Source: Plectrocnemia conspersa
Lineage: Eukaryota; Arthropoda; Insecta; Trichoptera; Polycentropodidae
Length of the DNA: 64,000 nt
NCBI GenBank assembly: GCA_009617715.1
Contig: VTFK01000006.1
Span: 2,046,001 to 2,110,000 of the forward strand
Direction of reading: 5' to 3'
Of the stretch, positions 56,892 through 59,580 are shown piece by piece. A program made the position numbers and the translations under genes. The notes beneath the pieces are model-generated. The model was not told the DNA's origin and did no database searches. It worked only from the letters and a program-made list of their open reading frames with translations. Positions within the stretch are counted from its first letter, which is position 1; the number at the start of each line of letters is the position of its first letter.

Positions 56892-56940
56892 CCCCTTGCT
56901 CATCCAGCATGACGAGGGTTTTCATGCCCACCTCGTGGCT
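56892..56940 (-). CDS. Snap25: Snap25 mutually exclusive exon, version C
   Basis: 49 nt, acceptor GTGTTGTAG|AGCCAC, donor CAAGGGG|GTAAGC. It encodes SHEVGMKTLVMLDEQG, then G of the next Glu codon. It aligns residue by residue with exons A and B, corresponding to vertebrate SNAP-25 residues 39-54, and ends on the zero-layer Gln53 and Gly54. It resembles the vertebrate sequence (TLVMLDEQG) more than version A does. The short alternative frames covering it are shadows. Confidence 0.92.
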
Positions 56941-58420
56941 CTACAACACACCAACAGTGTCACTAGATCTGGCTCAAACAAATACGCAGGACTCGTGGGA
57001 ATTTCCGTGGACGGTTTTAGTGACTATTAATTCTCCAGTCTTATTTACAACGATTAATAGTAGAGTAATATAGTAAAAAAAAACGAGCACAACTCACTAG
57101 TATATTGAATAGATACATATATAAAACATTAATTGCGTTACAGGAACTGGAGAAAAAATAGATCGAGAGAGGAAGAGTAATGATCTTTGATGCGGTAAGG
57201 ATAAGTTTGAGAAGCACAAAAAATATTATTATAAAATCAAATAAATGCAATTAAATATGATATATATAAAAAAATAAAATCGATAAATAAAACACAAAAT
57301 CAACAAACATAAAAAAAAACTGAAAGCCATTCTTACAGTAATAAAATAAATATAAATTGCAAAAATAAATACCACATTAAATAAAGTCTAAAAAGGATTT
57401 AAAGTCTTGATGTTATTTGATACTATTTATTTTACTGTGATTTGAATTATATATGGAATTAAAAAAACGTATGAAATAACATCCTTTGGAAGGATAAGGT
57501 AAAGAGCAACATATTCATACGTCAACATACACATCGGCGAAGATTCGAGCTCTTAAATAAAACAAACATATAATCCTCCATTTTCTAAATAAACAGTCAT
57601 TTATGAAAACCTGATTAAAAAAGTAGAGGAAAAGTAATAATATATATATACGTAACACTCGTCCTAAACAGATGTAATATTTAATATATATAATATATAT
57701 GATTTAACACCAGATATGAGAAAAAATAAACTTATTTATAAACACACTATTTAATAGCTTTGCAACAAACAATCACGGCCATCGGGCTGCTCTATACAAA
57801 TAATCAAAAAAAGAACCGGCAATATAAAATAGCCCCAAAAATAGTATAATAATAATAACAAAAGGTAAACACTACTAACATATCCCATATTATACGAAGG
57901 ATATATAATATATTAATATATAGTTAGTTCGATAAGACAATGCAGTACTGCGTTACCCTCTATCTATTTTTTATTATATATTTGCATACACCAAGATAAA
58001 TAAGTAGTGCAATTATCAGAAAATATTTAATTTTTATTTTAAATTATGATGAAAAAAATCCGTACTCCATTAGTCACAATTGCTAGTGTTGCCATCATTG
58101 CGATGCATATATAAGTTAATTCCGGTATTATTTTTGTATATACAAATAAGCTGTCAAATTAAAATTTAATTTATTTTACATAAAGAAACAACACCGTACT
58201 GCACTCCTCGTCTCAACTGACTACATACATATATATTATAAAACAATAAAAATCAAAGACAAGAGATCATATCAACACTCAAGTTATACAGTCAGTAAGG
58301 TCAGTACATATTAATAGAACTGAGAAAATTGGCAAACTGCAAGACATATAAAACAGAAACGTTTGATAGTTTTTTTTTTCATTAATCATATATCCAACTA
58401 CCAGCTTCTGTTAATCTTAC
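56941..58420 (-). other. Snap25 intron between versions B and C
   Basis: A 1.48-kb, very AT-rich intron. The word AAATAACATCC occurs at 57472-57482 here and again just upstream of version B (58504-58514). No coding is seen. Confidence 0.6.
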
Positions 58421-58469
58421 CGCCCTGATGTGTCAACATTCGAGTCGTCTGGCCCCCAGCCTCCTCGCT
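58421..58469 (-). CDS. Snap25: Snap25 mutually exclusive exon, version B (divergent)
   Basis: 49 nt, acceptor TATATATAG|AGCGAG, donor CAGGGCG|GTAAGA. It encodes SEEAGGQTTRMLTHQG. Mapped on vertebrate numbering, it keeps the core-layer positions Ala42, Thr46, Met49, Leu50 and Gln53 but changes exposed ones: residue 40 Glu, 44 Gly, 45 Gln, 47 Thr, 48 Arg, 51 Thr, 52 His. Length, phase, splice sites and absence of stops argue for a real exon. Its acceptor has a TA-rich rather than pyrimidine-rich tract, which suggests weak or regulated use. It could be a decaying copy, but conservation of just the layer residues speaks against that. Confidence 0.78.
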
Positions 58470-59531
58470 CTATATATATACAGAACACACATGAAAGTAT
58501 ATCAAATAACATCCGGAGTTTTGCCATCGATCGACAATAACGATTCCCAATTGTTTTATTTATACCAAACGACATTCATCATAGTGATGATAATATAATA
58601 ATAATAATAATAATAAATAATACAATTTCAATAGGTGTATATATATATTTACGTGACGGTGCATATAAATATATCTAGATACATATTTGAAATATATGTA
58701 CAACGATAAAAAACGCGAAGAAGGAAATATATAGACGTGAACCAACCATAATAAAAGCGAACTATGCTAGTATATGTATATATATAATAATAATAATGCG
58801 TAAGATGAATTTTGTGAAACAGGCAAGCCCATGAAGAATCATGAAGTGCTCAGGCTTCGATTCGGAAGCGTACAGGCACGCATTGTCCACGCAGAACATC
58901 CGATAAGTGAATCATATACGTACCAGTGTTTATTACAATAAGAGTCATATACTTATTAACAATGTGCCGCTTTTAAATCGTATAGCTATAAGTATAATAT
59001 TATTGTGGAAAACACTGGTCCACGATTAATCTTTATGTTCGGTAAACGCTTAACGGATGTTCTGCGACTCTCATCTATAAAGCGTAAAAATGTTCGCATT
59101 TCCAATTGAAATTATATGTGGCATATATTATAATATATATATAAATATAAAAAAGGAACTACGTTCATAATCAGTGACAGTGACACACATGCATCTACCT
59201 TGGTAGTATCGTCCTTGTAATGTATTATTTTGCTCGGTTTATCCGTGAATCAGAATTATATGTGTGTCAATTGGGAGAATCGGACAATCTGTGAATTCTG
59301 CTGTGTCTTATACGAGAAGTATAGTGTGTGTTTTATATTTTCTTTTATAAATCGCAACTGAGAGATCGCCTCTCCGATCTAAACTTTTCGCGTTGATAAT
59401 AATCGGACGTGACGCAATACAGCTTTCGCTTCGCCGTGATCAACGATACAAAATACAGTTTTTTATCTTTCGATCAAATAAATATATATATATAATGTAA
59501 GTGTTGTTAATGTATGGATGATATCACTCAC
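58470..59531 (-). other. Snap25 intron between versions A and B, with structured RNA
   Basis: A 1.06-kb intron with less AT-biased sequence than its neighbours at 58800-59080 and 59330-59460. A long imperfect hairpin lies at 58890-59066. A trinucleotide (AAT)n-like stretch lies at about 58590-58621. Confidence 0.7.
58890..59066 (-). promoter_or_regulatory. Long imperfect hairpin between exons A and B
   Basis: CGCAGAACATCCG (58890-58902) pairs perfectly with CGGATGTTCTGCG (59054-59066). Further in, ACCAGTGTTT (58922-58931) pairs with 59010-59019, ACAATAA (58935-58941) with 59000-59006, and ATACTTAT (58949-58956) with 58988-58995. The four blocks are nested in order around a 31-nt loop, so they form one extended stem with bulges. 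Such intronic stems are known to govern mutually exclusive splicing and ADAR editing in insect neuronal genes; which applies here is inference. Confidence 0.75.
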
Positions 59532-59580
59532 CTCCCTGGTCGTCTAGAGCGACCAGAGTGCGAATTCCGGCCTCCTTGCT
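59532..59580 (-). CDS. Snap25: Snap25 mutually exclusive exon, version A (canonical)
   Basis: 49 nt, acceptor after a T-rich tract and GGCCATAG|AGCAAG, donor CAGGGAG|GTGAGT. It encodes SKEAGIRTLVALDDQG, identical to my recollection of the fly SNAP-25 sequence at this place, so it is taken as the ancestral form. It starts on a codon boundary, so the preceding exon (encoding ESLESTRRMLALCEE in the fly) must end in phase 0. That exon is not in the window up to 64000, leaving an intron of at least 4.4 kb. Confidence 0.95.

What the first reader, a model, noticed from the sequence alone, without database searches (positions are those of the whole stretch)
56892..59580. Three tandem, 49-nt, mutually exclusive exons in Snap25
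Seen: exons at 59532-59580, 58421-58469 and 56892-56940 (minus strand) have identical length, the same splice phases (0 in, 1 out), proper AG/GT borders, and encode alignable 16-residue blocks (SKEAGIRTLVALDDQG, SEEAGGQTTRMLTHQG, SHEVGMKTLVMLDEQG). As 49 is not divisible by 3, skipping all or using two would break the frame. Known: vertebrate SNAP-25 has a duplicated alternative exon 5a/5b encoding the cysteine region; the duplication here is in the preceding exon. Inferred: one gene gives three versions of the first SNARE helix around the zero layer. I do not know of a described triple duplication at this position.
Basis: partly seen in the sequence, partly recalled or inferred. Interest (0 to 1): 0.82.

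Follow-up and report, generated by a model that had tools for sequence, protein, structure and literature searches.

The report
Three alternative SNAP-25 exons in insects
An insect gene for the nerve-release protein SNAP-25 carries three interchangeable versions of one tiny exon, an arrangement that database proteins show in many insect orders with a two-way counterpart in molluscs and an acorn worm, and the most variable version keeps the fusion core but rewrites the patch that in mammals binds the calcium sensor synaptotagmin.

Summary
Three 49-nt exons (A 59580-59532, B 58469-58421, C 56940-56892, minus strand) lie in the SNAP-25 gene of a caddisfly-like insect. They are the top 3 of 81 open AG-49-GT segments in the window, far above the rest. 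Only single inclusion keeps the frame.

It is not caddisfly-specific. Database insect proteins from mayflies to flies carry the three types. In Bacillus rossius the A, B and C isoforms are identical outside the 16-residue block. A two-way version (K-type/Q-type) occurs in four molluscs and a hemichordate. Type C was seen in named insects only.

The block is SNAP-25 residues 39-54: layers -4 to 0 plus K40, D51 and E52 of the mammalian synaptotagmin-1 primary interface. Insect B blocks keep the layer residues but lose K40 (44 of 45 distinct) and the acid at 52 (43 of 45; His in 32). I infer a splice switch that spares SNARE assembly while changing Syt1 coupling. Binding and expression were not tested.

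Exclusivity is leaky: 11 of 11 frame-shifted database models that I decoded fit two-exon transcripts. No earlier description appeared in my library searches.

The parts
59532..59580 (-). Alternative exon A (K-type): SKEAGIRTLVALDDQG + G
   Evidence: the one distinct block in 13 of 13 named insect A records
58421..58469 (-). Alternative exon B (closest to Q-type): SEEAGGQTTRMLTHQG + G; K40E, L47T, V48R, D51T, E52H against mammalian SNAP-25
   Evidence: Arctopsyche B differs at 44, 47 and 48
56892..56940 (-). Alternative exon C (seen in named insects only): SHEVGMKTLVMLDEQG + G
54783..54900 (-). Constitutive exon 5 (118 nt): EQLDRIEEGMDQ... to the cysteine region
54585..54713 (-). Exon 6 (129 nt)
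54118..54262 (-). Exon 7 (145 nt), second SNARE helix, ends ...DRINRK
52205..52267 (-). Alternative last coding exon 1: GESNETRIAVANQRAHDLLK stop
49783..49848 (-). Alternative last coding exon 2: GESNETRIAVANQRANKLLKS stop

Best explanation
The three exons are functional alternative exons of the SNAP-25 gene, used one at a time in the middle of the first SNARE helix (mammalian residues 39-54, layers -4 to 0). Shown by sequence: exactly one must be used to keep the frame; the types recur in many insect orders; and a two-way choice (K-type and Q-type) of the same block exists in molluscs and a hemichordate. Inferred: the choice leaves the four-helix core intact but changes the outer face that docks the Ca2+ sensor synaptotagmin-1. 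A keeps K40, V48, D51 and an acid at 52. C keeps V48, D51 and E52 but not K40. B loses K40, V48 and the acid at 52, usually to a conserved His. So A (and largely C) should support Syt1-clamped, synchronous release, and B should support fusion that is less Syt1-coupled or coupled to another partner. Two-exon transcripts carry an early stop, so they are probably removed by nonsense-mediated decay. My odds by step: functional alternative exons 0.95; insect B and the Q-type share an origin older than insects 0.7; altered Syt1 coupling as the main point of B 0.45. The single figure below is for the whole chain taken loosely.
For: Three lone matches in the window; frame logic; A/B/C isoforms of Bacillus rossius, and A/B, A/C or B/C pairs of six other insects, identical outside the block; K/Q pairs identical outside the block in Pomacea, Physella, Babylonia, Mercenaria and Glandiceps; in 45 distinct insect B blocks the five layer positions are the conserved ones (5 of 4368 position quintets as low or lower, itself included) while K40 is kept in 1, V48 in 2, D51 in 12, an acid at 52 in 2, and His52 is found in 32. 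Papers (passages seen): SNAP-25 K40, D51, E52, E55, Q56, D166 form the Syt1 interface (PMC8967716); mutating both sides of it abolishes the Syt1 clamp (PMC7220375); D51A/E52A/E55A impairs C2B binding (PMC4878868); V48 contacts Syt1 and V48F is a disease mutation (PMC10911398).
Against: No RNA or binding data were seen. 11 of 11 decoded database models fit two-exon transcripts, so exclusivity is incomplete. E55, Q56 and the SN2 side of the interface are unchanged in the window's constant exons (E55 and Q56), so binding may only be weakened. D51 is kept in 12 of 45 B blocks. Non-insect Q-types often keep V48, D51 and E52 (14, 15 and 8 of 19 distinct), so loss of the interface is clearer in insect B than in the old Q-type. 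The interface is defined in mammals, not insects. 9 of 56 distinct B blocks are closer to K-type.
Confidence: 0.6

Rival explanations
1. The exons are real alternatives, but they tune SNARE assembly or another partner (Munc18, Munc13, NSF/alpha-SNAP, a different synaptotagmin), not the Syt1 primary interface.
For: His52 beside the zero layer is conserved in 32 of 45 distinct B blocks, which looks like a positive requirement and not mere loss of Syt1 contact; position 49 and position 44 also change in B.
Against: Layer residues S39, G43, T46, L50, Q53 are the conserved ones in B, and the changes include the Syt1-contact residues named in the papers.
Confidence: 0.3
2. The cluster works mainly as a dose control: two-exon inclusion is regulated and gives decay-prone transcripts, so the main output is how much SNAP-25 is made.
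For: 11 of 11 decoded frame-shifted models fit A+B (1), A+C (2) or B+C (8) transcripts; all such products hit a stop in the window gene.
Against: Full-length single-block isoforms of all three types are annotated, and the protein pattern in B is constrained, which dose control alone would not require.
Confidence: 0.15
3. B is a decaying or little-used copy with no protein role.
For: B is the most divergent type; in the window its 3' splice site has a pyrimidine-poor tract (tatatatatag); three of 16 residues differ from Arctopsyche while the rest of the 147-residue comparison is identical.
Against: B persists from mayflies to flies, keeps layer residues and a common His52, and the three Arctopsyche differences avoid layer positions.
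Confidence: 0.05

Closest known systems
Vertebrate SNAP25 exon 5a/5b mutually exclusive pair (PMC2581893, passages)
   Same: Equal-position tandem homologous exons in the same gene; one copy per productive transcript
   Different: It is the next exon downstream (window exon 5, single copy here); two copies, not three; stated to be absent from Drosophila and to date from early bony fish. The event here changes residues 39-54 with the Syt1 contacts.
Mutually exclusive exon clusters in insects (Dscam, Mhc, N-cadherin; seen as search listings)
   Same: Tandem homologous exons of equal length and phase, frame-locked choice
   Different: No docking/selector pairing was found here. Two insect/MXE method papers have no SNAP in a term search of their main text (PMC3303723, PMC3228551).
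SNAP-25 / SNAP-23 gene pair of vertebrates (PMC8967716, passages)
   Same: SNAP-23 differs near the Syt1 interface by K40Q, L47I and V48T; among 19 distinct non-K blocks of named non-insects Q40 occurs in 17 and I47 in 7
   Different: Two genes there, one gene with exon choice here; the own-genome search found one SNAP-25-type gene and one SNAP-29-like frame

Membership tests
SNAP-25 (Qbc-SNARE) | Sequence relation to SNAP-25 over both SNARE helices and the cysteine linker | tested here: met
   Closest proteins are annotated SNAP-25 with PF00835; solved mammalian SNAP-25 matched over query 18-214 (query partly from Arctopsyche)
SNAP-25 (Qbc-SNARE) | Zero-layer Gln in helix 1 | tested here: met
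   Q at block position 53 in A, B and C; 45 of 45 distinct insect B blocks
Mutually exclusive exon cluster | Tandem homologous exons of equal length and phase with proper splice borders | tested here: met
Mutually exclusive exon cluster | Zero or multiple inclusion breaks the product | tested here: met
Mutually exclusive exon cluster | Transcripts contain exactly one member | tested here: inconclusive
   Single-block isoforms prevail in the lists (94 of 120 in normal context), but 11 of 11 decoded models fit two exons; no reads
Vertebrate exon 5a/5b event | Duplication of the exon after residue 54 | tested here: not met
   The repeated exon is residues 39-54 and exon 5 is single here
Syt1-uncoupled SNAP-25 form (works-like claim for B) | Loss of Syt1 primary-interface residues | tested here: met
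   K40, L47, V48, D51 and E52 all changed in the window's B; across insects; E55 and Q56 retained
Syt1-uncoupled SNAP-25 form (works-like claim for B) | Reduced binding of Syt1 C2B | not testable with these tools
   needs biochemistry

The most novel reading that the evidence does not exclude
The bilaterian ancestor already had a splice switch in SNAP-25 that set the synaptotagmin-1 clamp surface (K-type exon on, Q-type exon reduced) without touching the fusion core. Vertebrates replaced it by the SNAP-25/SNAP-23 gene pair plus exon 5a/5b; insects expanded it to three, with B a Syt1-uncoupled form whose conserved His52 beside the zero layer makes a new contact.
Probability: 0.3. Interest if true: 0.85.

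Novelty: new variant of a known kind. Interest (0 to 1): 0.62.

Why it matters
SNAP-25 is one of the best studied fusion proteins, yet invertebrate work usually treats it as one protein (my background judgement). If the choice of this exon sets how tightly fusion is tied to synaptotagmin, one insect gene makes clamped and less clamped release machines, and past reagents may have hit only some of them. It would supply natural, long-tested variants of the surface mutated in human SNAP25 encephalopathy (V48F), and a way to ask whether Syt1 coupling was first set by splicing and later by gene duplication.

Tried and rejected
Chance: rejected by the AG-49-GT scan. Caddisfly-only duplication: rejected. 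A fourth copy upstream: the 10 kb locus beside the window had 5 open AG-49-GT segments on the gene's strand, best score -20.8. Steric exclusion: introns of 1,062, 1,480 and 1,991 nt make it unlikely. U2/U12 incompatibility: the three donors are gtgagt, gtaaga, gtaagc, so not supported. Docking/selector pairing: of six intron pairs four had no seed; one pair (60407 with 58908) reached -22.9 against a best of -21.5 in 20 random pairs, the other was within random; no shared selector, so only a lead. Origin of exon C: 7 of 7 distinct C blocks slightly closer to K-type (mean -1.4) though V42 is Q-like; unresolved. Structure prediction was not run, because SNAP-25 alone is largely unfolded (recalled). 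The Drosophila catalogue of Hatje and Kollmar 2013 was seen only as a citation.

Full report
Check of the observation. As a chance test, each stop-free AG-49-GT segment on both strands of the window was scored against a matrix of SNAP-25 blocks from database proteins. Of 81 segments the three exons score +35.7 (C), +32.7 (A) and +20.5 (B); the fourth scores -11.8 and the remaining ones average -31.7. Exons 5 (54900-54783, 118 nt), 6 (54713-54585) and 7 (54262-54118) follow, and each single exon keeps the frame through exon 7. Skipping gives a stop after 16 residues, AC and BC after 29, ABC after 38, AB after 71. The first coding exons lie outside the window at 65519-65412 and 65294-65253 (window-equivalent): MPAVAAAAAPPPAENGAVPKTELQELQMKAGQVTDD and SLDSTRRMLSLCEE, the latter before a gtgagt donor, 5,672 nt upstream of A on the same contig. 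The 10 kb locus there holds no fourth copy.

Organism and gene. The best database match is SNAP-25 of the caddisfly Arctopsyche grandis, isoform X3 (98% over 147 residues). Its A block equals the window's; its B block differs at residues 44, 47 and 48. The three differences in the 147 residues are thus all in B and all off the layer positions. The own genome (392.9 Mb, 959 contigs) gave six matches to SNAP-25: five in this gene, one in an intronless 260-residue frame on another contig. The scanned part of that frame matched Pfam V-SNARE_C; the name SNAP-29 is my reading of its sequence. A family-level search for further copies did not complete.

How widespread in insects. Three protein searches listed 120 hits each (of 2449, 2470 and 2472), 221 distinct proteins together. 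In the first list, biased to B by its query, 94 of 120 had a block in the normal context (65 B, 18 C, 11 A), 24 had another context and 2 no block. For statistics 188 of the 221 had a parsed block and 33 did not; leaving out unnamed records and non-insects gave 89 named insect blocks: 54 B (45 distinct), 22 C (7 distinct), 13 A (1 distinct). B is seen in Ephemeroptera, Blattodea, Phasmatodea, Orthoptera, Thysanoptera, Hemiptera, Hymenoptera, Coleoptera, Lepidoptera, Trichoptera and Diptera (names, blocks; orders recalled). In Bacillus rossius isoforms A, B and C are identical outside the block; likewise Arctopsyche A/B, Planococcus B/C, Thrips palmi B/C, Copidosoma B/C, Cotesia typhae B/C and Cloeon A/C. 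The Cloeon B record differs from A at four other places as well; an Anoplophora pair and a Drosophila pair (two species) had unequal lengths and were not compared.

Beyond insects. Isoforms of one species identical except within this block occur in Pomacea (X6/X5), Physella (X5/X4), Babylonia (X2/X1), Mercenaria (X4/X3) and the hemichordate Glandiceps (X2/X1): a K40 form such as SKEAGIKTLVMLDEQG and a Q-type form such as SQDVGVKTLSVLDQQG (the Babylonia partner is AEDAGIKTIVMLDEQG). The two Haliotis isoforms also differ only in the block but both have K40; the Biomphalaria, Dreissena and Mya pairs differ only at the ends. Records of Limulus, Daphnia and Artemia are Q-type; three spiders and the decapods Panulirus, Cherax and Procambarus have the insect A block, a tick nearly so, while Macrobrachium and Portunus records have other blocks. 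Two unnamed records form an A / SQDVGANTLVALNHQG pair identical outside the block (P0198/P0204). Met44, the mark of type C, is in 0 of 57 parsed named non-insect blocks; four more named records were not parsed there, three of them spiders with the A block. Of 56 distinct insect B blocks (unnamed included) 44 are closer to the Q set, 3 tie and 9 are closer to the K set, among them the mayfly Neocloeon; all 7 C blocks are slightly closer to K. Common descent of Q-type and insect B is likely but not proven by 16 residues.

What the block does. The ungapped match to mammalian SNAP-25 and the residue names in the papers make the block residues 39-54. With I67 as layer +4 (PMC10911398, passages), counting in threes and fours puts layers -4 to 0 at 39, 43, 46, 50, 53. 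In 45 distinct insect B blocks these have a summed entropy of 1.38 bits; 5 of 4368 position quintets, itself included, are as low. K40 is kept in 1 of 45, V48 in 2, D51 in 12, an acid at 52 in 2, and His52 occurs in 32. A keeps K40, V48 and D51 with Asp at 52; C keeps V48, D51, E52 but not K40 (22 of 22 named insect C blocks). In mammals the SNAP-25 side of the Syt1 primary interface is K40, D51, E52, E55, Q56, D166 (PMC8967716, passage). Mutating the interface on Syt1 and on SNAP-25 (K40A/D51A/E52A/E55A/D166A) abolishes the Syt1 clamp (PMC7220375, passage). D51A/E52A/E55A impairs C2B binding (PMC4878868, passage). V48 contacts Syt1, and V48F combines loss of Syt1 binding with eased fusion (PMC10911398, passages). 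SNAP-23 differs there by K40Q, L47I, V48T (PMC8967716). The window's B changes K40, L47, V48, D51 and E52; E55 and Q56 stay, being in exon 5.

Against this reading: non-insect Q-types keep V48 in 14, D51 in 15 and E52 in 8 of 19 distinct blocks, so loss of the acidic contacts is chiefly an insect B feature; the interface was defined in mammals; nothing here measures binding.

How it most likely works. Shown: three intact exons, single-use frame logic, single-block isoforms in databases. Inferred: regulated choice, decay of wrong combinations, different coupling to Syt1. Exclusion is not strict: of 24 first-list records with an unusual context I picked 11 that looked frame-shifted; all 11 decode as an A or B exon in the +1 frame upstream of the next block, above the best of 300 shuffles each: A+B once, A+C twice, B+C eight times (two records are one Culex species), always in the order A, B, C of the window. 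Two short models starting with MIRE fit the end of exon A in that frame (read by eye). The remaining unusual records are truncated or otherwise odd models and were not decoded.

What is known. The vertebrate exon 5 pair is the closest event in print; the paper says it is absent from Drosophila (PMC2581893, passages). A term search of the main text finds no SNAP in two MXE papers (PMC3303723, PMC3228551); the human MXE paper mentions only the known pair (PMC5740500, passages); PMC9741552 reports 54 genes with tandem exon events in human and fly but its main text has no SNAP25 (passages). Eight library searches aimed at an earlier description listed none that I recognised; I read listings, not each paper. 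sought interface and layer facts. The isoforms do exist as automatic database annotation.

Verdict. A real, old and widely shared splice choice in a central fusion protein, new to the papers I could search, with a specific and testable idea about synaptotagmin coupling: a new variant of a known kind.

Noticed in passing
52267-52205 and 49848-49783, minus strand: The same gene has two alternative last coding exons (...AHDLLK and ...ANKLLKS); molluscs also have paired C-termini, so exon 4 and last-exon choice could give 3 x 2 proteins.
   Followed up: partly
database Drosophila records P0072-P0075: The Drosophila blocks listed are A or C only; whether Drosophila lost B cannot be told from lists cut at 120.
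   Followed up: no
60407 and 58908, minus strand introns: A 10-11 nt complement (TCCGATAAGTG) between the intron before A and the A-B intron; slightly stronger than 20 random pairs.
   Followed up: partly
31223-31999 +: Open frame matching the ZIP zinc transporter family (PF02535).
   Followed up: no
35123-36373 -, 39439-40053 +, 43439-44617 +: Three C2H2 zinc-finger array frames close together.
   Followed up: no
L008:568-1350 (G000 C149): Intronless 260-residue frame that looks like SNAP-29, the one other SNAP-25-family match in this genome.
   Followed up: partly
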